Source: Streptomyces drozdowiczii
GTDB taxonomy: Bacteria; Actinomycetota; Actinomycetes; Streptomycetales; Streptomycetaceae
Assembly: GCF_026167665.1 (NCBI RefSeq)
Contig: NZ_CP098740.1
Coordinates: forward strand, 3,472,001-3,536,000
Length of the DNA: 64,000 bases
Reading direction: 5' to 3'
Shown here: positions 21,628 through 61,306 of the stretch, one piece after another
Layout: every line of letters starts with the position of its first letter
Numbering within the stretch: position 1 is the first letter of the stretch
The notes under the pieces: model-generated
The model's input: the letters and a program-made list of their open reading frames with translations, nothing else
What the model was told of the DNA's origin: nothing
Databases searched by the model: none
Position numbers and translations under genes: made by a program

Positions 21628-23781
21628 ATGAACGCGCCGTACGACGGTGACCGCGGTCAGGGTACGGGCGGGGCCGGGTACTCCGGCGGCCCTCCGGTGC
21701 CCCCTGACGAGCAGCAGCCGGCGCCGGACCCGTATCTGCAGTCCGCGTACGACTACGACCCGTACCGGGCGCAGGACCTCTCCGCCCAGGACCCGGTGGA
21801 CGAGGCGCTGTACGACCGCGCCGCGCATCCGCCGCCCCCTCCCGGCACCTACCAGCAGCCGCAGCCGCTCTATCAGCAGCCGCCGTCGCCCCAGTACGCC
21901 CCCGACCCCCGCATCTGGGCCCAGACGCCGCCCCCCGAGCCCGCTGGTCCCTCGCGCCACCTCCCGTACGGCGACAACGCCGCGACGACCCAGTTCGTGG
22001 GCGTGGACGACCTCGTCACCCAGGCTTCCGCGAACCGCGACGAGCCCGACGCCTTCGCCCACCTCTTCCGCGACCAGGAGGGTCCCGCGAACCCGGGCGC
22101 CTCTCCGGCCCCGGCCCAGCCCGAGCCCGCTCCCGCGCCGGCCAAGTCCGGCGGCCGTGCCTCCAGCCTGCTGAAGTCCAGCGCGGTCATGGCGGCCGGC
22201 ACCCTCGTCTCGCGCCTCACCGGCTTCGTCCGCAGCCTCGTGATCACCGCGGCACTCGGTGCGGCCCTGCTCGGCGACAGCTTCACCATCGCCTACACGC
22301 TGCCCACGATGATCTACATCCTCACCGTGGGCGGCGGCCTCAACTCGGTCTTCGTCCCCCAGCTCGTCCGCTCGATGAAGGACGACGAGGACGGCGGCGA
22401 GGCATACGCCAACCGCCTCCTGACTCTGGTGATGGTCGCCCTCGGCCTCATCGTCGCCGTGGTGGTCTTCGCGGCCCCCTGGCTGATCCGGCTGATGTCC
22501 TCGACGATCGCGGACGACCCGGCAGCCAACAACGTCGCCGTCACCTTCGCCCGCTACTGCCTGCCCACCATCTTCTTCATGGGCGTGCATGTGGTGATGG
22601 GGCAGATCCTCAACGCCCGCGGAAAGTTCGGCGCGATGATGTGGACCCCGGTCCTGAACAACATCGTCATGATCTTCACCTTCGGGATGTTCATCTGGGT
22701 CTACGGCACGTCCCACGAGTCCCACATGGGCGTGGACACGATCCCGCCGGAGGGCGTGCGGCTCCTCGGCATCGGCACCCTGCTCGGTCTGGTCGTGCAG
22801 GCGCTGGCGATGATCCCGTATCTGCGCGAGGCCGGCTTCCGCTTCCGTCCGCGGTTCGACTGGAGGGGCCACGGGCTGGGCAAGACCATAAAGCTCGCGA
22901 AGTGGACGGTGCTGTTCGTCTTCGCCAACCAGGCCGGTGTGCTGGTCGTCACCCAGCTCGCGACCTCGGCCGGCAAGGCGTCCGGGAAGAACGGCGCGGG
23001 TTTCCTCGCCTACTCCAATGCCCAGCTGATCTGGGGCATGCCGCAGGCGATCATCACCGTCTCGGTCATGGCAGCCCTGCTGCCGCGGATCTCCCGGGCC
23101 GCCCACGACAACGACCCGGGGGCCGTCCGCGACGACATCTCGCAGGGGCTCCGGAACTCCGCCGTGGCCATCGTCCCGGTCGCCTTCGCGTTCCTCGCCC
23201 TGGGTGTGCCGATGTGCACCCTGCTCTACTCGTCCAGCGGCCCCGACGCCGCGCGCTCCATGGGCTTCATCCTGATGGCCTTCGGCCTAGGCCTGATCCC
23301 CTACTCCGTGCAGTACGTGGTGCTGCGCGGGTTCTACGCGTACGAGGACACCCGCACGCCCTTCTACAACACCGTCATCGTCGCCCTGGTCAACGCGGCG
23401 GCCTCCGCCCTCTGCTACGTCGTGCTGCCCGCCCAGTGGGCCGTGGTCGGCATGGCCGCCTCGTACGGCCTGGCCTACGCCGTCGGCGTCGGGATCGCCT
23501 GGCGCCGACTGCGCAACCGACTCGGCGGGGATCTGGACGGCGCGCACGTGGTCCGCACGTACGCCAGGCTGTGCCTCGCCGCACTGCCCGCCACCGTCAT
23601 CGGCGGAGCAGCGGGCTTCGGCCTTCTCCAAGTGCTCGGGGAAGGCGCCTTCGGCTCGCTCGTCGCCCTGGTCTTCGGCGGTGCCCTGCTCCTGGGAGTG
23701 TTCTTCGTCGCGGCGAGGAGAATGCGGATCGAGGAGATCAACGGCATGGTCGGCATGGTCAGGGGGCGGCTCGGCCGCTGA
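21628..23781 (+). CDS. murJ: Lipid II flippase MurJ (MviN)
   Basis: A 717-aa protein. Residues 1 to about 170 are a Pro/Gln/Tyr/Asp-rich cytoplasmic extension typical of actinobacterial MurJ; the rest is a 14-helix MOP-superfamily transporter beginning SSAVMAAGTLVSRLTGFVRS, with TLPTMIYILTVGGGLNSVFVPQLVR and GFYAYEDTRTPFYNT conserved motifs. It flips the peptidoglycan precursor lipid II across the membrane. Neighbours are the DUF6049 gene upstream and the pseudokinase gene 133 bp downstream, equivalent to the C-terminal half of the fused mycobacterial MviN. Confidence 0.95.
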   Translation: MNAPYDGDRGQGTGGAGYSGGPPVPPDEQQPAPDPYLQSAYDYDPYRAQDLSAQDPVDEALYDRAAHPPPPPGTYQQPQPLYQQPPSPQYAPDPRIWAQTPPPEPAGPSRHLPYGDNAATTQFVGVDDLVTQASANRDEPDAFAHLFRDQEGPANPGASPAPAQPEPAPAPAKSGGRASSLLKSSAVMAAGTLVSRLTGFVRSLVITAALGAALLGDSFTIAYTLPTMIYILTVGGGLNSVFVPQLVRSMKDDEDGGEAYANRLLTLVMVALGLIVAVVVFAAPWLIRLMSSTIADDPAANNVAVTFARYCLPTIFFMGVHVVMGQILNARGKFGAMMWTPVLNNIVMIFTFGMFIWVYGTSHESHMGVDTIPPEGVRLLGIGTLLGLVVQALAMIPYLREAGFRFRPRFDWRGHGLGKTIKLAKWTVLFVFANQAGVLVVTQLATSAGKASGKNGAGFLAYSNAQLIWGMPQAIITVSVMAALLPRISRAAHDNDPGAVRDDISQGLRNSAVAIVPVAFAFLALGVPMCTLLYSSSGPDAARSMGFILMAFGLGLIPYSVQYVVLRGFYAYEDTRTPFYNTVIVALVNAAASALCYVVLPAQWAVVGMAASYGLAYAVGVGIAWRRLRNRLGGDLDGAHVVRTYARLCLAALPATVIGGAAGFGLLQVLGEGAFGSLVALVFGGALLLGVFFVAARRMRIEEINGMVGMVRGRLGR

Positions 23782-32229: not shown

Positions 32230-32311
32230 CTCCGTAGCCCTAACGGGCCTGCGATGGGGAGGGCGGCCGCCTCATGACCGCGGCCGATGATTCCATGCAG
32301 CAGAGAACGAC

Positions 32312-48838: not shown

Positions 48839-48915
48839 GGGGCTATAGCTCAGTTGGTTAGAGCGCATCCCTGATAAGGATGAGGCCACAGGTTCAAATC
48901 CTGTTAGCCCCACCA
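48839..48915 (+). tRNA. tRNA-Ile (GAT anticodon)
   Basis: GGGGCTA at 48839-48845 pairs with TAGCCCC at 48905-48911; D-arm AGCTCAGTTGGTTAGAGC, anticodon loop CTGATAA with GAT, and T-arm GGTTCAAATCC are all canonical. The 3' CCA is encoded (48913-48915). Confidence 0.97.
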
Positions 48916-48918
48916 GCG

Positions 48919-48952
48919 CGAAGGCCCCCACCGGGAACGGTGGGGGCCTTCG
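48919..48952. terminator. Terminator after tRNA-Ile
   Basis: A 14-bp perfect stem (CGAAGGCCCCCACC with GGTGGGGGCCTTCG), 6-nt loop. Confidence 0.88.
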
Positions 48953-48983
48953 GCGTTTCCGGGATGTCATCCCGGATGCGGCG

Positions 48984-49307
48984 TCATCTCGTGGCCGTAC
49001 GCCGCAGGCGGCCGCGCAGCGTCTGCGCGAGGGCGCCGAGGACGAATGCCTGGACCAGGGCGCTGACGACGACTCCGCCGGCCAGGAACCAGTACGAGAC
49101 GGCGCCCTGGCCCCCGATCTCCATGCCCACCATGGAGAACAGCAGGGACGCCGGGGCGGTGAGGAGGAACGGCCAGACCCCTACGAAGCCGGGGTCACCG
49201 AAGGTAGCGGCGGCCGCCTCGAACACGATGGAGGCCCCGACGATCCCCAGGTAGACGGCGGAGACGGGGTTGGCGAAGGTCAGACGGAACAGGGCGCGAG
49301 CGTGCAT
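48984..49307 (-). CDS. Small integral membrane protein
   Basis: 107 aa from ATG 49307, with GGGGGA upstream. Three to four hydrophobic segments: VSAVYLGIVGASIVFEAAAATF, FLLTAPASLLFSMVGMEIGG and SYWFLAGGVVVSALVQAFVLGAL, then a short basic tail. The family is conserved in Streptomyces without a known role. It converges on the tRNA-Ile terminator. Confidence 0.78.
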   Translation of the reverse strand: MHARALFRLTFANPVSAVYLGIVGASIVFEAAAATFGDPGFVGVWPFLLTAPASLLFSMVGMEIGGQGAVSYWFLAGGVVVSALVQAFVLGALAQTLRGRLRRTATR

Positions 49308-49478
49308 GGGATCCCCCGGGAGCAGCGGTAGTTGGTGCCCTCCATGTTTGTGGCGCGTCGGGCTCCGGGCGTGAGTACACCTACTCATCCGGCATGTGTG
49401 AACGCCCGGGTGCACGGGAAAGCCCCCGTCCGGTGTGAACCGGCCCGGGGGCTCAGGGGATCAGGTGCGGCGGCGCTG

Positions 49479-49862
49479 TCACGGTGGCAGGAGCGAGGCG
49501 TCCTGCGCCGTGGTGCCGTGCGAGGTGCGGGCGGAGCCCGTGGTGTTCACGGTGTTCCTGGTGTCCGAGGACAGATGCCGGGTGGCGGGTGAGGAGCCGT
49601 GGGCCTCGGCGCGGATGCGCTGCTTCATCGTGGGCGGCAGCGCCCGGTCACGCGGAAGGGTCCATCGCACCGAAGGACCGGTCGCTGTTGCGCGGGCGGC
49701 GGGCGTGTGCTCGTGGGCCGTGGCCGCCGGCTCCGTGTTCGTGTTCGTGGTCGTGACCTGCGCGGCGGTGGCGGTGGCGCTCGCGAAGCCCAGGGCCGCG
49801 AGGAGTGCGAAGAACGCGGTGACGAGGGCGGTCCAGATGTTCTTGGCCGAGACGGTGCTCAT
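49479..49862 (-). CDS. Small secreted protein (DUF6344-like)
   Basis: 127 aa: an N-terminal hydrophobic segment (IWTALVTAFFALLAALGFASATATA) acts as signal peptide or anchor; the rest is Thr/Ala/Ser/Arg-rich and probably disordered, with a central RDRALPPTMKQRIRAEAHGSSPATRHL conserved-looking core. This resembles DUF6344 proteins of Streptomyces, though I cannot confirm by search. Function unknown. Confidence 0.65.
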   Translation of the reverse strand: MSTVSAKNIWTALVTAFFALLAALGFASATATAAQVTTTNTNTEPAATAHEHTPAARATATGPSVRWTLPRDRALPPTMKQRIRAEAHGSSPATRHLSSDTRNTVNTTGSARTSHGTTAQDASLLPP

Positions 49863-50157
49863 GGCCCCTCACTTTCGGGTGGTCCGGTTTGCTTACCTTT
49901 CCGATGATGTGGATCCGGCCCGCGATTTCGTGGACCGACGCCGCGCATGCGCCGATCTTCAGATGAACACCACTCGTATGGTTCAACCGGCCCGCTCCGG
50001 CTTCCGGTAAGGGCGTCCGAGGGGCACGCACAGAGGGGCCCCGGCCGCACGTCGGCAGGCGCCAATTGGGTTGCGGGGAGGTCACCGGTCGATATCGGCC
50101 GGTGTGTATAGTCGGGCGGCAGAAGTCCCCTACGCCAACGAAGGACGAGGTCGCGCG

Positions 50158-50292
50158 GTGAAGAAGCTTCTCCTGGTCGCACTGGCCGCCATCGGCGGGC
50201 TCCTCGTGTACCGCCAGATCCAGGCGGATCGCGCCGAGCAGGATCTGTGGACGGAGGCGACCGACTCCGTGCCCGCGGGTTCGGGTGCCTGA
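50158..50292 (+). CDS. DLW-39 family small protein
   Basis: A 44-aa protein from GTG 50158: a hydrophobic N-terminal half (KKLLLVALAAIGGLLVYRQ) followed by the diagnostic ADRAEQDLWTEATDSV. The family is a tiny actinobacterial membrane-anchored protein typically found near gyrA/tRNA-Ile. Role unknown. AAGGACGAGG upstream serves as ribosome-binding site. Confidence 0.82.
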   Translation: MKKLLLVALAAIGGLLVYRQIQADRAEQDLWTEATDSVPAGSGA

Positions 50293-50550
50293 GACGGAAC
50301 AGCCTGGTACGAGCCCCGGTCGCTGACGCGGCCGGGGCTTCGTGCTGTTGCGGAACCGTGACAGCCGTGCTTTTGGTTCGCGCGAGTAAATCAATTCGGC
50401 CGCCGCCGCAGACAGCGGCGGTGCTTGAGGGGCAGGATGGGCGGTCGTTGCGGCCGCGGGGGCTGCCGCCATGGCCGCGATTCCGGCCGTGTTCGTCTGT
50501 GTACCCGGCCGCCGAGGGGCAGCCGTACGGATAACGAGGGGAAGCGCGTG

Positions 50551-51903
50551 ATGAGGCGGCGCAGCAGGATGCGGGGGGCGCTCGCGACGATGGCGGCGGT
50601 GTTCGCGGTGGCGGCGCTGCCGGGACAGGCGTACGCGGCCGGTGCCCCCGGCTCGTACACCTTCGATCCGGACGCCGAGTCGGCCGTCGGCGCCGACATC
50701 AGCGCCGAGGCGTCGAAGCTGGAGCCGGGCGGGGTCTACAGGAGCGCGATCCGGAGCGGGCAGAAGCTGTACTACCGGCTGGACCTGGACGCGAAGACCA
50801 ACGCCTATGTCTCCGCCGTCGTCGTGCCGAAGAGCGGCGGCAAGGTGTCGTACGGGGACGGGATCACGGTCAGCATCCGGGACAGCTCGGACGACGAATG
50901 CAGCTCCCAGGACGCCGTGTTCGGGTCCGCGCAGTACCCCCGCCCCATCGCCGCGTACGCCTCCCGGCGGATCGACAAGGACGGCAGCTGCCAGGACGCC
51001 GGCACGTACTACGTGCTGATCGAGCGGGAGACCAAGGAGACCTCCGACCAGGGGGAGTGGGACCTGGAGCTGCGTTACGCCTCCGAGCCGCAGCTCGCGA
51101 AGCCCTCCCCCGAGGCGACCACCGCCCCGACGGCCTGGCCGTCCGCGTCCCCGCCGCCGCCCGCCGCCGCCACGGACAACACCCGGCGCGGGGGCGCCGG
51201 TTACTACGACGCCACGAGCCTGGAGACGGGTGAGTGGAAGGACCGGATCGAGCCCGGGCAGACCCTCTTCTACCGGGTGCCGGTGGACTGGGGCCAGCAG
51301 CTCTTCGCGACGGCCGGGCTGAGCAACAGCACCTCCGAGAAGAGCGCCTACGTCAGCAGCGCGCTGGCGGTGTCGCTGGAGAACCCCGCGCTGGGGCACG
51401 TCGCCGAGGTGTCGCCCACGTCCTATTCGGGAAAGCCGATCTCCGTCCCCTTCGACCCGCTGCCCCCGGTGGCGTACGAGAACCGCTACGACTCCAGTGA
51501 CGATGTCGGCGGGATGCGGTTCGCGGGCTGGTACTACCTCTCCGTCTCGCTGAGCCCGGAGGTCGCGAAGCCGTACGGGCAGAAGCCGATCGCGCTGACC
51601 CTCAAGATCAGCGTGAAGGGCGAGGCGGAGGAGTCGCCGTACAAGGGCGATGCCGGGATCTTCGCCGTGACCCCGGGCGACAAGGACGCGGCGCGGCAGG
51701 GGCAGAGCGGCGCGCAGGCCGCTGAGGCCGCGGGCGAGCGCGACACGATGAAGCTGGTCGCGGCGGCCGGGATCGGCGCCGGCACCGTGCTGGTGCTCTG
51801 GCTGGGGGCGTGGACCCTGATCGCGCGACGCCGCGCGGCCGCCGCACCGGCCGCGCCCACGGGCGGGCCGTACCCGTACGGAGGGCCGCCCCAGGCTTGG
51901 TAG
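50551..51903 (+). CDS. Secreted protein with C-terminal membrane anchor
   Basis: About 450 aa from ATG 50551 (an in-frame GTG at 50548 is as good; GAGGGG at 50536-50541). Signal peptide MRGALATMAAVFAVAALPGQAYA; then two similar beta-rich segments (about 35-185 and 215-385), each starting with a DA...LEPG-YRSAIRSGQKLYYRL / ET...IEPGQTLFYRVPV theme, separated by a Pro/Ala linker; then one transmembrane helix (LVAAAGIGAGTVLVLWLGAWTLI) and a Pro/Gly cytoplasmic tail. The internal duplication suggests two pre-peptidase-C-like or related sandwich domains. Function unknown. Confidence 0.8.
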   Translation: MRRRSRMRGALATMAAVFAVAALPGQAYAAGAPGSYTFDPDAESAVGADISAEASKLEPGGVYRSAIRSGQKLYYRLDLDAKTNAYVSAVVVPKSGGKVSYGDGITVSIRDSSDDECSSQDAVFGSAQYPRPIAAYASRRIDKDGSCQDAGTYYVLIERETKETSDQGEWDLELRYASEPQLAKPSPEATTAPTAWPSASPPPPAAATDNTRRGGAGYYDATSLETGEWKDRIEPGQTLFYRVPVDWGQQLFATAGLSNSTSEKSAYVSSALAVSLENPALGHVAEVSPTSYSGKPISVPFDPLPPVAYENRYDSSDDVGGMRFAGWYYLSVSLSPEVAKPYGQKPIALTLKISVKGEAEESPYKGDAGIFAVTPGDKDAARQGQSGAQAAEAAGERDTMKLVAAAGIGAGTVLVLWLGAWTLIARRRAAAAPAAPTGGPYPYGGPPQAW

Positions 51904-51925
51904 GCGGGGGCGGCCGTCCTCGTAC

Positions 51926-53247
51926 TCAGGACTGGGTCAGCGCCCAGATGCCCACGGCGAAGCAGACCAGGGCCACCAGCAGGACCGGGACCGCCACCTT
52001 CGGGGGTGGTCCCGGACGCGTTCCGGGGGAGGACGCCGGTGCCTGGAAGGGGGCTGCCCCTTGCTGGGGGCCGTGTAGGGGTGGGTGAAGGGCTGATCGT
52101 GCGGGCCGGGGGCCGGTGCGGGCACGGGGCTCGCTGCCGGGGCGGTGTAGCCGACCGGGTTCGGATAGCCGTACGGAGCGGCGGGTGCCGCGGTTTGCGG
52201 GGCGTGGGGCGCGGGAACGGCCGGCCCGGGGGGCGGGAGGTGGAAGCTGCCCGTCTCGGACATGGAAGCCGGGGCGGAGGGGGAGGGCTGCGGCGCGAAC
52301 TGCCCGTCCGTGCGGGGGTCGGTTGTCCGAGGACCCGGGGAGTGCGCTGCCGTCGTCCCGCCGGACCGCAGGGGGCCGTCGGGGCCGAAGCCCTCGGGCA
52401 GCGGGCCGATCTGGTCGAAGACCTCCACCGGCTCCTCGGCCTCCGAGGGCTCGGGAAGCATCTCGACGGCGGCGTTCAGCGCCTTGCGCGCACCCGTGGC
52501 CGTACGGAAACGGTCCTGCGGGTCAGGTTGCAGGAGCCCCGCGATGACCTGCCACAACGGCTCCGGGACGCCGTCCGGGGCGCTGGGAGTGCCGTGTTCG
52601 GCGAAGTGCTCGATGAGATCCTGCGAGTCGGGCTTGGTGCCCTGGAGCAGATAGAGGGCGACCAGGCCGACCGCGAAGAGGTCCGCCGGGAAGTCCGGTT
52701 CGGCGCCCATCATCTGCTCGGGAGCGAAGTAACCGAGCGTCCCCACCACGTAGTTGGTCTCGGTGAGGCGGGGCTCGCCCTTGCGCATGGAGATGCCGAA
52801 GTCGGACAGCCGCAGATGCGGGCGGCCCCGACCGGTGGCCTCCATAAGGATGTTGGCCGGTTTGATGTCCCGGTGCACGACGCCTTCGGCGTGCACCGTC
52901 GAGAGGCCGGACAGCAGCTGGTCGAGCAGGGTGCAGACGAATCGAGGGGGCAACGGGCCGTAGTCGCCGATGACATGGGCCAGCGAGCCGCCGCTGACGA
53001 GGTCCATGGTGAAGAGGACCTGGTCGTCGTCGGCGGCCCAACTGGCCGGAGCGAGCACATGGGGGTGCTCGATGCGCAGCGCCTGTTCACGGACGAAGCG
53101 GAGCAAGGTGTGCGCGTCGCTCTGCTGGAGCACCTTGGCCGCCACATAGCGGCGGCGCCGGTGGTCCCAGGCGCGCCACACGGCACCGACCCCACCGCGT
53201 CCGATCGGATCGACCAGTTCGTACCGTCCGGCGAAGACCTCACCCAT
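51926..53247 (-). CDS. Membrane-linked serine/threonine protein kinase (frameshift near the 3' end)
   Basis: The ATG at 53247 starts a Hanks-type kinase: P-loop IGRGGVGAVW, AAKVL lysine, catalytic VVHRDIKPANIL, SDFG and APE (YFAPEQMMG), so all catalytic residues are present. A Pro/Ala-rich linker follows. As read, the frame ends at 51937 with an Arg/Trp-rich tail. One extra C in the run at 52066-52070 would instead give a transmembrane helix (VAVPVLLVALVCFAVGIWAL) and a stop at 51926, as expected for this family. It is downstream of, and probably co-transcribed with, the XRE-type regulator. Confidence 0.88.
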
Positions 53248-53303
53248 GGCGCTGCGCCCGCTCCCCGTTCGTGTTCCGGCCCTTGCCCCCGTACCGCGCG
53301 GGC

Positions 53304-53852
53304 CTAGCTCTGGTGGCTCTCGTAGTGCGTCACCGCTTCCGCGGTGCGCCCCGCTCCGTACACCCGGAGGAACTCTGCCAGTTCCGGGTGCGTCGGGGCG
53401 AGGGAGTCCGCCGCGTCGATGATGTCACCGGCGGCCGCGACCGAGCGCAGCAGCGACTGGATCTCCCGGACCACCCGGCGCACCGTGGGGGCCCCGCCGC
53501 TGGACGTGGTCTGGCCGGTGCCGGAGAGGACCGAGCCGCCCTGGGACTTCTTGATCTCCTCCATGCGGGTCGTGGCCTCGGCGGCGCTGACGCTGCCGTC
53601 GGCGACCTGGCCGGCCAGCTCCTGAAGGGCCTGGACGCGCTGGACGACCGCCGGGTTGCCGATCTTCGCCCGCTGACCGCTCATGAGCTGGGAGAGCATG
53701 GGAGCGGACAGTCCGAGTGCCGCGGCGAGGCGGGCCTGGTTGAGGCCGAGGTCGTCGATCAGCCGGCGGAAGAGCGCCCCCAACGGCTCCCCGTACCAAC
53801 TGCGCTGGAGGTCTCTGGCTCTGGCCGTCGCCTCTTGCTGCGCTGCATCCAT
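53304..53852 (-). CDS. XRE-like helix-turn-helix DNA-binding protein
   Basis: 182 aa from ATG 53852 (AAGGGGAG upstream). The N-terminal half holds a HTH: LFRRLIDDLGLNQARLAAALGLSAPMLSQLMSGQRAKIGNP. The C-terminal half is Ala/Ser-rich with a helical RRVVREIQSLLRSVAAAGDIID segment. A transcription regulator with unknown targets, 56 bp upstream of the kinase gene on the same strand; the pair may form a signalling unit. Confidence 0.85.
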   Translation of the reverse strand: MDAAQQEATARARDLQRSWYGEPLGALFRRLIDDLGLNQARLAAALGLSAPMLSQLMSGQRAKIGNPAVVQRVQALQELAGQVADGSVSAAEATTRMEEIKKSQGGSVLSGTGQTTSSGGAPTVRRVVREIQSLLRSVAAAGDIIDAADSLAPTHPELAEFLRVYGAGRTAEAVTHYESHQS

Positions 53853-54020
53853 TGCGTCTCCCCTTCGCATCGGCTTCGCTGCTGCGAACCTCGACCAGCA
53901 TCTTACGGAGCGTGGTCGCGCACGGGGAGTCCCTGATTTTTTGCAGGATCACCGGGGTGAGCCGGTACTCTGTTCTGCGGCGGTGGCCAGAACATCGAAG
54001 TGTTCGGGCTGCGCGCTGTC

Positions 54021-54093
54021 GGGGCCTTAGCTCAGTTGGTAGAGCGCTGCCTTTGCAAGGCAGATGTCAGGAGTTCGAATCTCCTAGGCTCCA
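54021..54093 (+). tRNA. tRNA-Ala (TGC anticodon)
   Basis: GGGGCCT at 54021-54027 pairs with AGGCTCC at 54086-54092 (one G-U), D-arm AGCTCAGTTGGTAGAGC, anticodon loop TTTGCAA with TGC, T-arm GAGTTCGAATCTC. CCA is not encoded. Confidence 0.97.
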
Positions 54094-54100
54094 CATCCCG

Positions 54101-54140
54101 AGACCCCCCTGAACTGCGGAAACGCGGATCAGGGGGGTCT
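54101..54140. terminator. Terminator after tRNA-Ala
   Basis: Perfect 12-bp stem AGACCCCCCTGA with TCAGGGGGGTCT, 16-nt loop, followed by TTG. Confidence 0.85.
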
Positions 54141-54223
54141 TTGCGCGCGCCGACGGGCGCCGGGAGACCTCGCGGTCCTCCGGCGCCCGTCCTGGTGCGC
54201 GTGCTGTCGTGCGGGTGCGCGGG

Positions 54224-54954
54224 TCAGGCGCGGTCGTCCGGGCCCGTGGCCTCCGGGCCGTCCTCGCCGACCGCCTCGGCGTCGGCCTGCTTGGCCTCGA
54301 CCTCGGGGTCCAGGACCGTCGAGGCGTGCGGGCTGCCGTCGACGGAGGACAGCGGGGCGCGGTCGTCCACCTCGGTGGGGGCGGGCGGCTCCACCAGCCA
54401 CTCGGGGTTCGCCTGCTTGTCCCACCAGCGCCACACCGCGTAGCCGGCGCCTGCCAGGACGCCGGTGATGGCCAGGCCCTTGAACGCCTTGCCCGCCCTG
54501 GCCCGTCGCTCGTGCTTCCGGGCCAGCTTGCGGATCTGCTTCGCCGTGACCTGGCCGCGCAGGGCGGCCACCGCGGCGGCGCTGCGGGCCGCGGCTTCCT
54601 CGGCCACCGGCTGGGCGGCGGCCCGGGCGCTCTCGATGCGCGGGACGGTGTAGTCCGCGGCGCTGCGGGCGGCCTGACGGGTGCGGAGCGCGGCGCGCTG
54701 GGCGACCTCGTCAACCTTGGGGGTACGTGCGTGCGGGCGAGCTCGATACGCGGGGCGACGTGCGCGCCGTACTGCACACGGGCCTGCTTGGCTGCCTTCG
54801 ACACCTTCGGTGCGAGCAGCGTGCGGGCCTCGTGCGCATAGTGAACGGCCTGGTCCTTGGCCGAGTCGGCGTAGGGCGCCACCACTTCCGCGGCGTGCTG
54901 CACGCTGTCCCTCGCCGAGTCGGTTGCGGCACGCACGCTGTCGATGCGGGTCAC
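54224..54954 (-). pseudogene. DUF5324 family protein, interrupted by a one-base frameshift
   Basis: GTG 54954 (AAGGAGGAGG upstream) begins MTRIDSVRAATDSARDSVQHAAE, an Ala-rich amphipathic helical protein. The frame is lost at the five-C run of the coding strand (54719-54723). With a sixth C the reading continues as PPKVDEVAQRAALRTRQAARS and ends at 54224 after a transmembrane segment (GLAITGVLAGAGYAVWRWW), giving one protein of about 243 aa. Without it, no full-length product is made. Such proteins are conserved in Streptomyces with unknown function; they look apolipoprotein- or envelope-stress-like. Confidence 0.85.
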
Positions 54955-55258
54955 GGGATCCTCCTCCTTGGTGGCGGGTAGGTACTCCGCCTTTCCGCCC
55001 AATTCGAGATCATGCCTGCGCGGGCCCTTTGCGGCATGTGGGGCGGGCATCCGGGTCATTCGGTACCTTCCGATGACCATGCCATGGTTCGTCCGGTATC
55101 GCGCCGGTTCGTCACGCACTTGGCCGCATCGGTCGTGCCGCGGCCGTGGAGCGGCGGCGCGTGCAAGGATCGGAGCGTCGGACCGGTCCGGTCAGCGGGG
55201 CGGGCCGGAGCGCGGCGCAGTCGCGCGAGCACATGTGCAGACTCACGGAAGGCAGATC
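54955..55258. promoter_or_regulatory. Divergent promoter region between DUF5324 gene and cyclophilin
   Basis: A 304-bp gap with both ribosome-binding sites at its edges. I see no further structure. Confidence 0.4.
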
Positions 55259-55786
55259 GTGGCCGAGCAGCTTTACGCCACCTTGAAGACCAACAAGGGC
55301 GACATCGAGATCCGGCTCCTGCCGAACCACGCCCCCAAGACGGTCAAGAACTTCGTCGAGCTCGCCAACGGAGAGCGTGAGTGGACCCATCCCGCCACGG
55401 GGGAGACGTCGAAGGACCGGTTGTACGACGGCACCGTCTTCCACCGCGTGATCAGCGGTTTCATGATTCAGGGCGGTGACCCGCTGGGGAACGGCACCGG
55501 CGGTCCGGGTTACGAGTTCACGGACGAGTTCCACCCCGACCTCGCCTTCAACAAGCCCTATCTGCTGGCCATGGCCAACGCCGGACCGGGCACCAACGGC
55601 TCGCAGTTCTTCATCACCGTCTCGCCGACGGCCTGGCTGACCGGCAAGCACACGATCTTCGGTGAGGTGGAGGACGCGAAGAGCCGGGAGGTGGTGGACG
55701 CCATCGCGACCACCGCGACCAATGCGCGTACCGACCGGCCGGTGCAGGACGTCGTCATCGAGTCGGTCGCCATCGAGAAGCGCTGA
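55259..55786 (+). CDS. Peptidyl-prolyl cis-trans isomerase (cyclophilin A type)
   Basis: 175 aa from GTG 55259 (GGAAGG upstream). Active-site segments FHRVISGFMIQGGDPLGNGTGGPGY (catalytic R), ANAGPGTNGSQFFIT and WLTGKHTIFGEV match cytoplasmic cyclophilins, which catalyse proline isomerisation during folding. No signal peptide. A rhomboid protease gene follows after 145 bp on the same strand, as in S. coelicolor. Confidence 0.96.
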   Translation: MAEQLYATLKTNKGDIEIRLLPNHAPKTVKNFVELANGEREWTHPATGETSKDRLYDGTVFHRVISGFMIQGGDPLGNGTGGPGYEFTDEFHPDLAFNKPYLLAMANAGPGTNGSQFFITVSPTAWLTGKHTIFGEVEDAKSREVVDAIATTATNARTDRPVQDVVIESVAIEKR

Positions 55787-55931
55787 TCGCCCTCCGCGTC
55801 CGCTCGCTCACTCTCCGATTTCCCGTTCGGGAACCAACCGCCCCGCCCGTCCGTATCTCATGGCAGAACGGATGCGCGGGCGGTGTCGTGCGCACCCGTG
55901 CGAAGACGAGGACCGAGGGGACCGGGAAGCC

Positions 55932-56840
55932 ATGGGACCGATGGACCAGCAGCCGCCGGGCGCGTCCGGGCCGCCCCCGCCCGTCGAGGGGCCGGCCCAC
56001 TGCTACCGCCACCCGGACCGGGAGACGGCGGTCCGGTGCGTCCGCTGCGACCGGCCCATCTGCCCGGACTGCATGGTCGACGCGTCGGTCGGCTTCCAGT
56101 GCCCGGACTGCGTCCGCCAGGGGTCCGGTACGGGGCACGGCGCGTCCGCCGCCCGGCCGCGCACGCTGGCCGGGGGCGTCGTCGCGGCGGACCCCCGGCT
56201 GATCACCAAGATCCTGCTGGGGATCAATCTCGCGGTGTTCGTCGCGGTGCTGGCCGACGACGCGCTGCTCGACCGCCTGGTGCTGCTCGGCCGTGCCAAC
56301 TTCTACTACGGCGGACCGCCCGAGGGCATCGCGGAAGGCCAGTGGTACCGGCTGGTGACGTCGATGTTCCTGCACCAGGAGGTGTGGCACATCGCCTTCA
56401 ACATGCTGAGCCTGTGGTGGCTGGGCGGACCGCTGGAAGCGGTGCTGGGCCGGGCCCGCTACCTCGCGCTCTATCTGCTCTCGGGGCTGGCGGGCGGCGC
56501 CCTGACGTACTGGCTGGCGGAGCCGAACCAGCCCTCGCTGGGTGCGTCGGGAGCCATCTTCGGGCTCCTGGGCGCCACCGTCGTACTGATGCGTCGGCTG
56601 AACTACGACATGCGCCCGGTCTTCGCGCTCCTCGCGATCAACCTGCTTCTCACCTTCAACCCCTGGGGCGGGATCGCCTGGCAGGCGCACATCGGCGGGC
56701 TGATCGCCGGGGTGCTGATCGGGATCGGCATGGTGCACGCCCCGCGGGAGCGGCGTGATCTGGTGCAGTTCGGGACCTGTGCACTGGTGCTCGCGGCCGT
56801 CGTCCTGATCGTGGTGACGAGAACGGCCGCCCTCACGTAG
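55932..56840 (+). CDS. Rhomboid family intramembrane serine protease with N-terminal B-box-like zinc finger
   Basis: 302 aa. The N-terminus holds a cysteine/histidine-rich domain (CYRHPDRETAVRCVRCDRPICPDC...FQCPDC), a B-box-type zinc finger common in actinobacterial rhomboids. Six transmembrane helices follow, with the oxyanion HIAFNM, nucleophile GASGAIFG and the catalytic histidine in HIGGLIAG. Start ATG 55932 is provisional; 55941 (MDQQPPG) is the alternative. Substrates unknown. Confidence 0.93.
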   Translation: MGPMDQQPPGASGPPPPVEGPAHCYRHPDRETAVRCVRCDRPICPDCMVDASVGFQCPDCVRQGSGTGHGASAARPRTLAGGVVAADPRLITKILLGINLAVFVAVLADDALLDRLVLLGRANFYYGGPPEGIAEGQWYRLVTSMFLHQEVWHIAFNMLSLWWLGGPLEAVLGRARYLALYLLSGLAGGALTYWLAEPNQPSLGASGAIFGLLGATVVLMRRLNYDMRPVFALLAINLLLTFNPWGGIAWQAHIGGLIAGVLIGIGMVHAPRERRDLVQFGTCALVLAAVVLIVVTRTAALT

Positions 56841-57148
56841 AAGCGGCTGTCGGGGCGAGTGTGGACCATTTGTGACCGAAGTTGTCCACAGGGTTCCACA
56901 GCCTGATCCGGATCTTGTGCATAGCGCGGGTACAACTGTGCCCCTTGTCCCTGAGCTGGGTTTTTCCAGTCGGGACAAGGGGCGTCCCGCCCCCGGGCGG
57001 GGGCGGCTGCAGTCACACCGGCGTCAACGGCCTGAGAGTTATCCACAGATCGTCTGACCTTTTCCCCCACCTGTGGATAACGCTGTGGGTAACTCAGGGC
57101 AGGGGTTGCGGAGCGGGTGCGGCGTGTGGTTCTACGCGGTCGCGCGGG
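56841..57148. promoter_or_regulatory. Intergenic region between convergent rhomboid and crgA genes, with DnaA boxes
   Basis: 308 bp. It contains TTGTCCACA at 56882-56890 (perfect), TTATCCACA at 57039-57047 and the same on the minus strand at 57072-57080, plus the hairpin at 56940-56983. No gene seen. Confidence 0.65.
56940..56983. terminator. Hairpin between rhomboid and crgA genes
   Basis: A 12-bp perfect stem (GCCCCTTGTCCC with GGGACAAGGGGC) with an inner CTGG/CCAG pair around GTTTTT. Probable bidirectional terminator. Confidence 0.75.
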
Positions 57149-57403
57149 CTACTTCCACTGGGTGGAGACGCCGAAGCCGCCGGCGATGAAGCCGAAGCCG
57201 ACGACGATGTTCCAGTTCCCCAGCGACTTGATCGGCAGGTCGCCGTCGGTCACGTAGAAAACGACGATCCAGGCCAGCCCGATCAGGAAGAGCGCCAGCA
57301 TCACGGGCGCCACCCAGCTGCGGCTGGTGAGCTTTATGTTGGTCGCCTGCTTCGCCGGGGGCGGCGTGAAGTCGGCCTTCTTGCGGATCCGTGACTTCGG
57401 CAC
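57149..57403 (-). CDS. crgA: Cell division protein CrgA
   Basis: 84 aa: [18 protein letters not shown], the invariant CrgA start, and two transmembrane helices ([21 protein letters not shown] and [19 protein letters not shown]). CrgA interacts with FtsZ, FtsI and CwsA and restrains septation in Streptomyces aerial hyphae. It is divergent from the DUF881 gene. Confidence 0.97.
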
Positions 57404-57606
57404 GAGGAACTCTCCTGTCGATGCGCTGCGTGACCGCGCAGGGAACTGTGGCTGGCGCCGGGGCGGGGCGCGAGGGGGAATGTGGCCTCCCCCGGGCGTC
57501 CGTTAGCGTAGTCCTTCCGTGGCACCGAAGGAGATAAGGGTACGTTGAGCAATTCTGCCGACTCTCCCCCGGGCCGGTCCGCCGTACCTTCCGGCACCCG
57601 GCCAGA

Positions 57607-58311
57607 GTGCTCACGGCTGCCGTTTTCGCCCTTGCCGGGCTCATCTTCGTGACCAGCGCGAATACGGCGAAGGGCACCAATATCCGCACCGACGCCTCGC
57701 TGCTGAAGCTTTCGGACCTCATCCAGCAGCGCAGCGAGAAGAACGCCGCCCTGGAGGAGTCCGCCGCGTCCGTGCGCGGGGACATCGACAGCCTCGCCCA
57801 GCGCGACAACGGCAGCACCAAGGCGGAGGCCGCCAAGCTCAGGGCGCTGGAGCGGACCGCGGGCACTACCGCGCTGTCCGGCCCCGCCGTCTCCGTGACG
57901 CTCAACGACGCCCCGCCCAACGCCACCGCCAGCCCCGGCTACCCCGACCCGCAGCCCAACGACCTGGTCATCCACCAGCAGGACCTCCAGGCGGTCGTCA
58001 ACGCCCTCTGGCAGGGCGGCGCCAAGGGCGTCAAGGTCATGGACCAGCGGCTGATCTCCACCAGCGCCGTGCGCTGCGTCGGCAACACCCTGATCCTCCA
58101 GGGCCGGGTCTACTCGCCCCCGTACAAGATCACCGCGGTCGGTGACCCCGATGCGCTGCGACGCGCGCTGGATGCCTCGCCCGCCATCCAGAACTACCTG
58201 CTGTACGTGCAGGCGTACGGGCTCGGCTGGAAGGTGGACGAGCAGGGGGCGGCGACCCTTCCCGGCTACTCGGGCGCGGTGGACCTGCACTACGCGGAGC
58301 CGGTGAAGTAG
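57607..58311 (+). CDS. DUF881 family membrane-anchored protein (5' end frameshifted)
   Basis: The intact frame from GTG 57607 gives 234 aa: a transmembrane anchor (TAAVFALAGLIFVTSANT), a coiled-coil (LKLSDLIQQRSEKNAALEES) and the DUF881 domain with DLVIHQQDLQAVVNALWQGGAKGVKVMDQRLISTSAVRCVGNTLILQGRVY. The natural start is probably TTG 57545 (LSNSADSPP), but it is in another frame; one more C in the run at 57566-57570 would join the two and give about 255 aa. DUF881 proteins resemble the division gene region proteins of Firmicutes (YlxX/YlxW-like). It precedes pabA and sortases. Confidence 0.83.
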   Translation: MLTAAVFALAGLIFVTSANTAKGTNIRTDASLLKLSDLIQQRSEKNAALEESAASVRGDIDSLAQRDNGSTKAEAAKLRALERTAGTTALSGPAVSVTLNDAPPNATASPGYPDPQPNDLVIHQQDLQAVVNALWQGGAKGVKVMDQRLISTSAVRCVGNTLILQGRVYSPPYKITAVGDPDALRRALDASPAIQNYLLYVQAYGLGWKVDEQGAATLPGYSGAVDLHYAEPVK

Positions 58312-58405
58312 CAGACGGCGACAGGCGCCGCACAGCTTTCCACAGGCATCCCACGCCGGGCCCCGAGCCCCTTAGTCTGGACCCGGTACCGAATGGAGGG
58401 TCTGG

Positions 58406-58591
58406 ATGTACAGCTGGATCTGGCGGCATCTGCCGGGCAACGTGTGGGTGCGTGGGTTCATTTCGCTCGTGCTCGCCCTGGCGGTCGTCTATGTGCTGTT
58501 CCAGTACGTCTTCCCGTGGGCGGAGCCGCTGCTTCCGTTCGGCGACGTGACGGTCGACGGAGCGAGCGCGCCGGCGGGGGCCGCCCGATGA
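58406..58591 (+). CDS. Small membrane protein upstream of pabA
   Basis: 61 aa from ATG 58406: MYSWIWRHLPGNVWVRG, one transmembrane helix (FISLVLALAVVYVLFQYVFPWAEP) and a short extracytoplasmic end. The stop overlaps the pabA ATG by 4 bp (ATGA), so the genes are translationally coupled. Conserved in Streptomyces at this place; function unknown. Confidence 0.85.
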   Translation: MYSWIWRHLPGNVWVRGFISLVLALAVVYVLFQYVFPWAEPLLPFGDVTVDGASAPAGAAR

Positions 58592-59226
58592 GCGCCCGCA
58601 TCCTCGTCGTGGACAACTACGACAGCTTCGTCTTCAACCTCGTCCAGTACCTCTACCAGCTCGGTGCCGAGTGCGAGGTGCTGCGCAACGACGAGGTGAC
58701 CACGGCCCACGCGCAGGACGGCTTCGACGGCGTCCTGCTCTCCCCCGGCCCCGGCACCCCGGAGCACGCGGGCGTCTGCGTCGACATGGTGCGGCACTGC
58801 GCGGCGACCGGCGTCCCGGTCTTCGGGGTCTGCCTGGGCATGCAGTCCATGGCCGTGGCGTACGGCGGCGTCGTCGGCCGCGCCCCCGAGCTGCTGCACG
58901 GCAAGACCTCGCCGGTGCTCCACGAGGGCGCGGGCGTGTTCGCCGGGCTGCCCTCGCCCTTCACCGCGACCCGCTACCACTCGCTCGCCGCCGAGCCGGA
59001 CACCGTGCCCGACGAGCTGGAGGTCACCGCGCGGACCGCCGACGGCATCATCATGGGCCTCCGCCACCGCGAGCTGGCCGTCGAGGGCGTGCAGTTCCAC
59101 CCGGAGTCGGTGCTCACCGAGCACGGCCACCTGATGCTGGCCAACTGGCTGGTGCGCTGCGGGGACACCGGAGCCGTCGAGAGGTCGGCGGGGCTCGCTC
59201 CGGTGGTGGGCAAGGCCGTCGCGTGA
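58588..59226 (+). CDS. pabA: Glutamine amidotransferase component of aminodeoxychorismate/anthranilate synthase
   Basis: 212-aa class I glutamine amidotransferase: ILVVDNYDSFVFNLVQYL start, LLSPGPGTPEHAG, nucleophile in VFGVCLGMQSMA and the H/E of VEGVQFHPESVLTEHG. It supplies ammonia to PabB or TrpE to make 4-amino-4-deoxychorismate or anthranilate; the partner is not in the window. Its GTGA end overlaps the sortase start. Position next to sortases is typical in Streptomyces. Confidence 0.93.
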   Translation: MSARILVVDNYDSFVFNLVQYLYQLGAECEVLRNDEVTTAHAQDGFDGVLLSPGPGTPEHAGVCVDMVRHCAATGVPVFGVCLGMQSMAVAYGGVVGRAPELLHGKTSPVLHEGAGVFAGLPSPFTATRYHSLAAEPDTVPDELEVTARTADGIIMGLRHRELAVEGVQFHPESVLTEHGHLMLANWLVRCGDTGAVERSAGLAPVVGKAVA

Positions 59227-60544
59227 CCCCACCCCGCCACGGAGCCGGGGCAGGGCAGGACGAGCCGCACGATCCGCGGGCGTACGAGGACCCGAGCGCG
59301 TTCGAGGCGGCGGTCCACCGGCTGGCGGACCCGTTGAACGACCCGCTGCCGGGGCCGGAGCCCGCAGCCCCGCAGCCCGTCCCGGAGCCCGTGGTCCCGC
59401 AGCAGCAGGCGCCCTACGAGCCACAGGCCCCCAGCAGGCCCCGCAGGAGTGGTACGACCCCGACGGGTACCAGCGCGACTGGTACGGCCACCAGGCGCCC
59501 GTACAGCCGCCCTTGACGGCATCGCAGCCCGTGCCCGACCCGTACGTCCTGCCCGACCCGAGCCCCGAGGCCGTACCGCAGCCCACGGCCGAGGAGGCCG
59601 TGGAGCCGGCCACCGAGATCCTCGGCCGAATAGACGCGGGCGACCCGGTCGTGCCGGAGCCGCGGGAGGCCACCGAGGCCGACGAGCCCGGTGGCGTACC
59701 CGACGCGGCCACGCCGCCGCCCACCGGGGGCCGCGCCGAGCGCAGGCGCGCCGCCAAGGGGCATGGCCGCAGGCGGCCCGCGCCGCGGCCCGCTCCTGGG
59801 AGCACGGCCCCGGCGAAGCCCATGACGCGCATGGAGGCGCGCCGCGCGGCCAAGGCCGCCAAGGACAGCCCCGCGATCGTCATCAGCCGGGGCATCGGCG
59901 AAATCTTCATCACCCTGGGCGTCCTGATGCTGCTGTTCGTCACCTACCAGCTCTGGTGGACGAATGTGCGGGCCGACCAGATCGCCGGCCGGGAGACCCA
60001 CAAGATCCAGGACGACTGGGCCAAGAACGAGAACACGCCTGAGAAGCAGGAGGCGTTCGAGCCGGGGCAGGGCTTCGCCATCATCCACATCCCCAAGCTG
60101 GATGTCGTCACGCCGATCGCCGAGGGCACCAGCAAGGAGAAGGTCCTCGACCGGGGCATGGTCGGCCACTACAGCGAGAAGCCGCTGAAAACGGCGATGC
60201 CCTCCGCCGAGGAGGGCAACTTCGCGCTGGCCGGCCACCGCAACACCCATGGCGAACCGTTCCGGTACATCAACCGCCTGAAGCCGGGTGACCCGATCGT
60301 GGTCGAGACCCGCGAGGCGTACTACACGTACGAGATGACGAGCGTGCTGGCGCAGACCTCGCCCTCGAACGTCTCCGTGATCGCGCCGGTGCCGAAGCAG
60401 TCCGGCTTCACCAAGCCCGGCCGGTACATCACCTTGACGACGTGTACGCCGGAATTCACGAGTACGTACCGTTTGATCGTCTGGGGCAAGATGGTCGACG
60501 AACGGCCGCGCAGCGAGGGGAAGCCCGACGTGCTCGCGGACTGA
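59223..60544 (+). CDS. Class E sortase (N-terminal region frameshifted)
   Basis: GTG 59223 overlaps the pabA stop. The disordered, acidic Pro-rich N-terminus is broken at the C run 59428-59432; a sixth C would lead into the frame that continues PQQAPQEWYDP and then from 59513 to 60544 without interruption. The downstream part has a basic segment, a transmembrane helix (EIFITLGVLMLLFVTYQLWW), and the sortase domain: catalytic H in LAGHRNTHG, TLTTC cysteine motif and the conserved R in TSTYRLIVWG. Sortases cleave LAxTG-like signals and attach proteins to the wall, such as chaplins. Confidence 0.87.
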
Positions 60545-60577
60545 ACGGGCCCCACGCCATGACGACAGGGCGGTGCT

Positions 60578-61306
60578 ATGACAGCGACGACCGAGGACCA
60601 GGAGCGGACCGACGAGTCCGCCCCACCCGCGCGGAAGGGCGGCCGCCATCCCCTCGCGACGGCGGTCAGTGTCTTCGGTGAACTGCTCATCACCGCAGGT
60701 CTGGTGCTCGGCCTCTTCGTCGTCTACTCGCTGTGGTGGACGAACGTGCTCGCCGACCGCGAGGCCGCCGAGCAGGGCCACACCGTCCGCGACAAGTGGG
60801 CCGACGGCCCCGGCGCGCTGGACACCAAGGACGGCATCGGCTTCCTCCACGTCCCGTCGATGAAGAACGGCGAGGTGCTCGTCAAGAAGGGCACCGACAC
60901 CGAAACCCTCAACGACGGCGTCGCCGGCTACTACACCGATCCGGTGAAATCCGCGCTCCCCTCCGCCAAGGAGGGCAACTTCGCGCTGGCCGCCCACCGG
61001 GACGGGCACGGGGCGAAGTTCCACAACATCGACAAGGTGAGGACCGGGGACGCGATCGTCTTCGAGACGAAGGACACCTGGTACGTCTACAAGGTCTTCA
61101 GCGAGCTGCCGGAGACGTCCAAGTACAACGTCGACGTGCTGGGCGCCGTCCCGAAGGACTCGGGTGTGAAGAAGGCCGGCCGCTACATCACGCTCACGAC
61201 CTGCACCCCGGTCTACACGTCCAAGTACCGCTACATCGTGTGGGGTGAGCTGGTCCGCACGGAGAAGGTCGACCGCGACCGCACGAAGCCGGTGGAGCTG
61301 CGCTGA
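60578..61306 (+). CDS. Class E sortase (second copy)
   Basis: 242 aa from ATG 60578. Transmembrane helix at about 28-50 (VFGELLITAGLVLGLFVVYSLWW), catalytic histidine in LAAHRDGHG, TLTTC cysteine motif and TSKYRYIVWGELVR. It shares the SAKEGNFALAAH/ITLTTCTP pattern with the upstream sortase and lies 33 bp after it, so the pair is a tandem duplication, as known for srtE1 and srtE2 in S. coelicolor that anchor long chaplins. Assignment as SrtE1 or SrtE2 is not possible from sequence alone. Confidence 0.93.
   Translation: MTATTEDQERTDESAPPARKGGRHPLATAVSVFGELLITAGLVLGLFVVYSLWWTNVLADREAAEQGHTVRDKWADGPGALDTKDGIGFLHVPSMKNGEVLVKKGTDTETLNDGVAGYYTDPVKSALPSAKEGNFALAAHRDGHGAKFHNIDKVRTGDAIVFETKDTWYVYKVFSELPETSKYNVDVLGAVPKDSGVKKAGRYITLTTCTPVYTSKYRYIVWGELVRTEKVDRDRTKPVELR

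What the first reader, a model, noticed from the sequence alone, without database searches (positions are those of the whole stretch)
51926..59513. Four one-base frameshifts in five-C runs within 8 kb
In four genes (Ser/Thr kinase, DUF5324, DUF881, first class E sortase) the coding frame breaks at a run of exactly five C (coding strand) and one added C restores a coherent protein with expected membrane helices or motifs. Runs: 52066-52070, 54719-54723, 57566-57570 and 59428-59432. In other parts of the window six-C runs in coding sequence are intact (for example in murJ near 21929). Such a cluster is more likely a sequencing or assembly homopolymer error than four real mutations, but a local slippage hotspot cannot be excluded.
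Basis: partly seen in the sequence, partly recalled or inferred. Interest (0 to 1): 0.75.

Follow-up and report, generated by a model that had tools for sequence, protein, structure and literature searches.

The report
Missing-base errors in a Streptomyces assembly
Four Streptomyces genes look broken because one letter is missing in each, but the same excess of missing single letters occurs in both parts of this genome that were sampled and not in its close relative, so they are very probably sequencing errors rather than mutations.

Summary
In detail: at 52066-52070, 54719-54723, 57566-57570 and 59428-59432 the window has runs of exactly five C (coding strand), and the frames of a Ser/Thr kinase, a DUF5324 protein, a DUF881 protein and a class E sortase break there. 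Of 82 relatives, those that could be judged have the two sides of the break in one open frame: 27 of 28 (kinase), 77 of 78 (DUF5324), 77 of 78 (DUF881), 40 of 40 (sortase). The cause is not local. In 576 kb aligned three ways with Streptomyces sp. CB01249 and sp. 2131.1, this assembly has 42 private one-base deletions in coding DNA against 8 in CB01249 (P about 1e-6), with equal private substitutions (11,257 and 10,901) and no excess of in-frame indels (11 and 18). The excess is about as dense in coding as in noncoding DNA (the noncoding part is small), whereas natural one-base deletions are 12-15 times rarer in coding DNA. The rate climbs with run length. This fits residual consensus errors, about 550 genome-wide by extrapolation. 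The cluster is the densest sampled, only marginally above chance. Raw reads were not available.

The parts
51926..53247 (-). Ser/Thr protein kinase gene with its frame broken near its 3' end; the intact near-strain protein (440 aa) ends in a hydrophobic segment (by eye) that the window's 436-aa ORF lacks
   Evidence: Pfam PF00069; P0121 matches in frame -3 and, past the break, frame -2; 27 of 28 judgeable relatives in one open frame, 54 of 82 not judgeable
52066..52070 (-). five-C run (coding strand), one base shorter than in CB01249; frame break of the kinase
54224..54954 (-). DUF5324 gene split in two frames (start inferred by eye from the ORF)
   Evidence: Downstream piece 54224-54607 matches only profile positions 117-220 of PF17258, the relative's intact protein matches 1-220; 77 of 78 judgeable relatives in one open frame
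54719..54723 (-). five-C run (coding strand), frame break of the DUF5324 gene
57545..58311 (+). DUF881 gene, frame broken about 8 codons after a TTG start; a 234-aa ORF from GTG 57607 remains
   Evidence: PF05949; P0001 in two frames; 77 of 78 judgeable relatives in one open frame
57566..57570 (+). five-C run, frame break of the DUF881 gene
   Evidence: two relatives agree on a longer run
59223..60544 (+). first class E sortase gene, frame broken in its N-terminal part; the sortase domain lies downstream and is complete (gene start inferred by eye)
   Evidence: PF04203; P0241, 435 aa, Streptomyces sp. CB02460; 40 of 40 judgeable relatives in one open frame, 42 of 82 not judgeable
59428..59432 (+). 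five-C run at or next to the frame break of the sortase gene
48924..48957 (.). hairpin downstream of tRNA-Ile whose two arms are each one base shorter than in both relatives; same kind of shortening, noncoding

Best explanation
The four frame breaks are consensus errors in the deposited assembly, not changes in the organism. One-base deletions left over from a long-read (or other homopolymer-weak) assembly fall in both sampled regions of the chromosome, most often in C/G runs. Four of them happen to fall in neighbouring genes here, possibly in a stretch of weaker read support. In the living strain the kinase, DUF5324, DUF881 and sortase genes are most likely intact. Shown: the breaks, intact forms in relatives, the excess in both sampled regions, its restriction to one-base deletions, and its lack of coding depletion. 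Inferred: the technology, the genome-wide number, weak local read support, and the intactness of the real genes.
For: Relative-rate test with two relatives in two 400-kb regions about 1.05 Mb apart: private one-base deletions in 484,618 aligned coding columns are 42 here, 8 in CB01249 and 18 in 2131.1, whose branch is 2.7 times longer (scaled: 6.7); by region 21 and 21 here against 3 and 5 in CB01249. Controls on the same alignments: private substitutions 11,257 and 10,901, coding in-frame 3-base indels 11 and 18, coding one-base insertions 10 and 6. The excess over CB01249 is 0.070 per kb in coding and 0.098 per kb in noncoding DNA, whereas one-base deletions are 14.6-fold (CB01249) and 12.4-fold (2131.1) rarer in coding DNA. 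Shortening by one grows with run length: 4 of 1786 runs of four, 7 of 383 of five, 8 of 38 of six; CB01249 7 of 1793, 2 of 380, 1 of 31; 2131.1 9 of 1826, 5 of 388, 3 of 34. 27 of the 42 coding losses lie in a run of four or more in a relative, against 3 of 8 and 5 of 18 for the relatives' own losses. C/G runs of six in 800 kb are fewer: 197 here, 237 and 247. Full-length near-strain proteins exist. Literature: PacBio-only Streptomyces assemblies differed from Illumina-corrected ones at 70, 295 and 335 places, the vast majority single-base insertions in homopolymers (PMC6923854, passages); S. albus SM254 had 205 remaining indels, nearly all in G or C homopolymers (PMC4832174, passages).
Against: No reads were seen and the sequencing method of this assembly is unknown. 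The extrapolated ~550 errors exceed the 70-335 reported for the Streptomyces assemblies. For runs of three or four the assembly is hardly worse than CB01249 (12 of 8425 against 8 of 8423; 4 of 1786 against 7 of 1793). The run effect at five and six rests on 15 of 421 against 3 of 411 (P = 0.007). The noncoding excess alone (31 against 22) is not significant (P = 0.27). Most losses lie in runs and only 8 of 42 in no run in either relative, so real slippage is not excluded by their position. The cluster is slightly denser than uniform errors would give. No gene that must be intact for life was shown to be broken.
Confidence: 0.92

Rival explanations
1. Real recent mutations: the lineage has a raised rate of one-base deletions (for example an indel-prone polymerase) so recent that selection has not yet purged them.
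For: Lack of coding depletion and run-length dependence would look the same; 34 of 42 coding losses lie in runs of two or more in a relative. In Streptomyces, loss of the NucS mismatch-repair enzyme did not considerably affect the indel rate (PMC11109965, passages), so NucS seems to guard little against indels.
Against: Substitutions, in-frame indels and one-base insertions are not raised. In wild-type Streptomyces mutation-accumulation lines indels were 9 against 147 substitutions, so hundreds of unpurged frameshifts would be expected to come with many more new substitutions unless the process is indel-specific. Hundreds of broken genes would have to be tolerated.
Confidence: 0.05
2. A local slippage hotspot or phase-variable tracts that switch these four envelope and signalling genes on and off.
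For: Densest cluster of shortenings in the sample; the four genes lie close together.
Against: Relatives keep the frame in 27 of 28, 77 of 78, 77 of 78 and 40 of 40 judgeable cases; many of the relatives shown have other letters in place of the C run; intergenic hairpin arms, some non-run bases and a distant region are affected alike.
Confidence: 0.02
3. Programmed ribosomal frameshifting that joins the two frames of each gene.
For: Runs of one base can act as slippery sites (general knowledge, no call).
Against: Nearly all judgeable relatives use one continuous frame; four unrelated genes would have acquired it in one strain.
Confidence: 0.01

Closest known systems
Residual homopolymer indels in long-read Streptomyces assemblies (PMC6923854 and PMC4832174, passages seen)
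   Same: Single-base differences, mostly in (G/C) homopolymers, 70-335 per chromosome of about 7-9 Mb
   Different: Here inferred without reads; extrapolated number higher (about 550); 8 of 42 coding losses lie in no run in either relative
Gene-fragmenting errors in long-read assemblies as described for Kastor (PMC12007338, passages seen)
   Same: Indel errors mostly false deletions, mostly tied to homopolymers, with a small share of losses of non-repeated bases
   Different: There A/T runs dominated in a 59% GC genome; here mostly G/C in a 71% GC genome
Contingency (phase-variable) homopolymer tracts (general knowledge)
   Same: One-base change in a run alters the frame
   Different: Tract often absent in relatives, their frames not variable, effect found far outside the locus

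Membership tests
Assembly homopolymer or long-read consensus error | Excess of one-base indels private to one assembly, without an excess of substitutions | tested here: met
   42 against 8 coding one-base deletions; substitutions 11,257 against 10,901
Assembly homopolymer or long-read consensus error | Indifferent to coding status | tested here: met
   Excess 0.070 per kb coding, 0.098 per kb noncoding; the noncoding figure is imprecise (31 against 22, P = 0.27)
Assembly homopolymer or long-read consensus error | Rate rises with run length | tested here: met
   0.2%, 1.8%, 21% for runs of 4, 5, 6; CB01249 0.4%, 0.5%, 3% (1 of 31)
Assembly homopolymer or long-read consensus error | Accurate reads disagree with the assembly | not testable with these tools
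   No reads available
Phase-variable contingency tract | Tract conserved and variable in length among close relatives | tested here: not met
Programmed ribosomal frameshift | Two-frame arrangement conserved among homologues | tested here: not met
Genuine pseudogene cluster | Decay restricted to a region or function | tested here: not met
   Same excess in a second region more than 1.2 Mb away
Indel mutator lineage | One-base insertions raised as well as deletions | tested here: not met
   Coding insertions 10 against 6, P = 0.45; noncoding 16 against 21. A deletion-only mutator is not excluded by this

The most novel reading that the evidence does not exclude
The strain really carries hundreds of fresh one-base deletions: a recent indel-specific mutator with a deletion bias, in a bacterium whose non-MutS repair guards little against indels, caught before selection could purge them.
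Probability: 0.05. Interest if true: 0.5.

Novelty: not a real feature. Interest (0 to 1): 0.07.

Why it matters
It matters only as a quality warning: genes of this assembly called pseudogenes or shortened proteins should not be read as biology without reads. The three-genome test (private one-base deletions against private substitutions and in-frame indels, split by coding status) helps to tell assembly error from gene decay when reads are missing.

Tried and rejected
Essential-gene test: relatives' versions of 20 of the 40 genes hit were scanned with NCBIfam in search of a broken gene that must be intact. Hits included Era, ClpB and a ParA-like ATPase. The breaks fall at 6%, 16% and 5% of the gene models; in Era and ClpB that is before the matched domain, and the true start may lie beyond the break. 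Nothing is concluded.

First frame-switch count by protein search: with CB01249 gene models 22 of 275 shared genes switch frame on this genome, with 2131.1 models 23 of 229; between the two relatives 9 of 232 and 10 of 234. But this genome's own models also switch on CB01249 in 22 of 275 and on 2131.1 in 18 of 230, and much of it is start-site noise. Replaced by three-way DNA alignments.

'All six-base runs in the cluster read as five': suggested by 3 of 3, rejected because four intact six-runs lie in the same stretch.

'A third of the coding losses lie outside runs' (14 of 42 judged by CB01249 alone): withdrawn. Judged by both relatives 8 of 42 lie in no run and 2 of these have no run beside them. 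The odds of the mutator rival were raised from 0.04 to 0.05 for this.

Low-coverage patch of about 10 kb: attractive (11 shortenings in 10.6 kb against CB01249 and none of the opposite kind in the aligned part) but only P = 0.055 (0.106 for 7.6 kb) and 45 of 4000 three-way, and the kinase site lies outside the alignments used. The substitution rate there is 5.1% against 4.5% for the region (3.1% and 4.2% in the neighbouring 20 kb), with only 6,984 of 10,801 bases covered.

Naming the strain: a literature search for its length found one unrelated paper.

Rows dropped: tiles that did not align three ways (121 of 400 and 97 of 400); indels without clean flanks; the relatives that could not be judged (54, 4, 42 and 4 of 82 for kinase, DUF5324, sortase, DUF881). 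One exception each was left unexplored: L076 (kinase), L072 (DUF5324), L054 (DUF881). One search left 42 of 392 genomes unscored.
Full report
WHAT IS THERE. The window is bases 3,472,001-3,536,000 of a single-contig Streptomyces chromosome of 7,386,614 bases, reported 99.64% complete. Runs of exactly five C on the coding strand stand at the four stated places. The genes are a Ser/Thr kinase (PF00069), a DUF5324 protein (PF17258), a DUF881 protein (PF05949) and a class E sortase (PF04203) (the class E name comes from listed homologues). Against Streptomyces sp. CB01249 one match of 11,479 bases at 93.3% covers all four sites, and the window is one base shorter at or beside each run.

ARE THE FRAMES REALLY BROKEN? 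Yes. A near strain has full-length forms: DUF881 of 255 aa (99% identical), kinase of 440 aa (99% over 92% of the query) and sortase of 435 aa (97%). The sortase is named Streptomyces sp. CB02460; the other two are unnamed but list a contig of the same length, 703,946. DUF881 and the kinase change frame on the window at the breaks (the sortase part of that output was cut, so its frame change rests). In 82 relatives, the segments on the two sides of the break lie in one open frame in 27 of 28 judgeable (kinase), 77 of 78 (DUF5324), 77 of 78 (DUF881) and 40 of 40 (sortase); the window differs in all four. The kinase loses its C-terminal hydrophobic segment (by eye), DUF5324 is cut inside its domain, and DUF881 and the sortase lose only the link to their N-terminal ends. 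The 234-aa DUF881 form also occurs among annotated relatives (21 of 120 listed); for Streptomyces sp. col6 it is a start-site choice, since its DNA keeps the frame.

IS IT LOCAL? No. Two 400-kb stretches of this genome, about 1.05 Mb apart, were compared with the matching stretches of CB01249 and the more distant Streptomyces sp. 2131.1. In 1-kb tiles, 279 of 400 and 303 of 400 aligned three ways, giving 576,087 columns, 484,618 of them coding by a codon-based gene model of 2131.1. One-base deletions private to one genome, coding: 42 here (21 and 21), 8 in CB01249 (3 and 5), 18 in 2131.1 (6.7 when scaled to the shorter branch). One-base insertions, coding: 10, 6 and 26. The gene-by-gene version on the first region gave 20-21 here, 1-5 in CB01249 and 10-11 in 2131.1.

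CONTROLS. Private substitutions are 11,257 here and 10,901 in CB01249, so the branches are about equally long. Coding in-frame 3-base indels are 11 and 18. Only coding one-base deletions are in clear excess, P = 1.2e-6. In the relatives one-base deletions are 14.6 and 12.4 times rarer per kb in coding than in noncoding DNA, the mark of selection; here only 3.9 times. The excess over CB01249 is 0.070 per kb coding and 0.098 per kb noncoding. The noncoding figure rests on 31 against 22 and is not significant by itself. An excess without coding depletion is what errors produce.

RUN-LENGTH DEPENDENCE. Where both relatives agree on the length of a C/G run, this assembly is one shorter in 4 of 1786 runs of four, 7 of 383 of five and 8 of 38 of six. 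Under the same rule CB01249 has 7 of 1793, 2 of 380 and 1 of 31, and 2131.1, on its longer branch, 9 of 1826, 5 of 388 and 3 of 34. Runs of five and six together: 15 of 421 here against 3 of 411 in CB01249, P = 0.007. Runs of six number 197 here, 237 and 247 in the relatives. Of the 42 coding losses, 27 lie in a run of four or more in a relative, 7 in a run of two or three, and 8 in no run; 2 of those 8 have no run beside them.

THE CLUSTER. Window 48,924-59,432 holds 9 three-way deletions, or 11 against CB01249 alone, with none of the opposite kind in the aligned part; the kinase site, outside those alignments, adds one. It is the densest 10.6 kb sampled. Under uniform placement the chance of so dense a spot somewhere in the sample is 45 of 4000 (three-way, 8 per 10.5 kb) or 0.055 (pairwise; 0.106 for 7.6 kb). 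Weak read support there is possible but not shown. Both arms of a hairpin after tRNA-Ile are each one base short, as expected if run length is misread on either strand; a paired real change cannot be excluded.

WHAT IT IS. Residual one-base deletion errors in the consensus. PacBio-only Streptomyces assemblies differed from corrected ones at 70, 295 and 335 places, the vast majority single-base insertions in homopolymers (PMC6923854, passages); S. albus SM254 had 205 remaining indels, nearly all in G or C homopolymers (PMC4832174, passages). The excess here extrapolates to about 550 for the chromosome, from 7.8% of it aligned. The technology is inferred.

WHAT IT IS NOT. Not programmed frameshifting or phase variation: judgeable relatives use one frame with three exceptions, and many of those shown lack the C run. 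A recent deletion-only mutator is not strictly excluded, but insertions and substitutions are not raised. In Streptomyces mutation-accumulation lines, wild type had 9 indels against 147 substitutions, and loss of NucS did not considerably affect the indel rate (PMC11109965, passages).

VERDICT. Very probably not a biological feature.

Noticed in passing
32255-32265 (- strand gene, 412 aa in relatives): A further likely one-base frame break near the N-terminus of a ParA-family ATPase gene: proteins of both relatives match in two frames there.
   Followed up: partly
48839-48965: tRNA-Ile followed by a strong hairpin (z = -6.2) whose C and G arms are each one base shorter than in both relatives.
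   Followed up: partly
54021-54145: tRNA-Ala (tgc) followed by a strong hairpin (z = -7.7) with six-base C and G runs in its arms, inside the cluster of shortenings.
   Followed up: no
59223-61306: Two sortase genes in tandem; the second (60578-61306) has an open frame and a complete sortase domain.
   Followed up: no
G000:C1:3553173-3553216 (outside the window; L162): Short repeat in which this genome has extra bases every 6 positions compared with CB01249.
   Followed up: no
L072, L076, L054: Single genomes in which DUF5324, kinase or DUF881 also appear out of frame at the same junction; could be their own errors, real changes or test noise.
   Followed up: no
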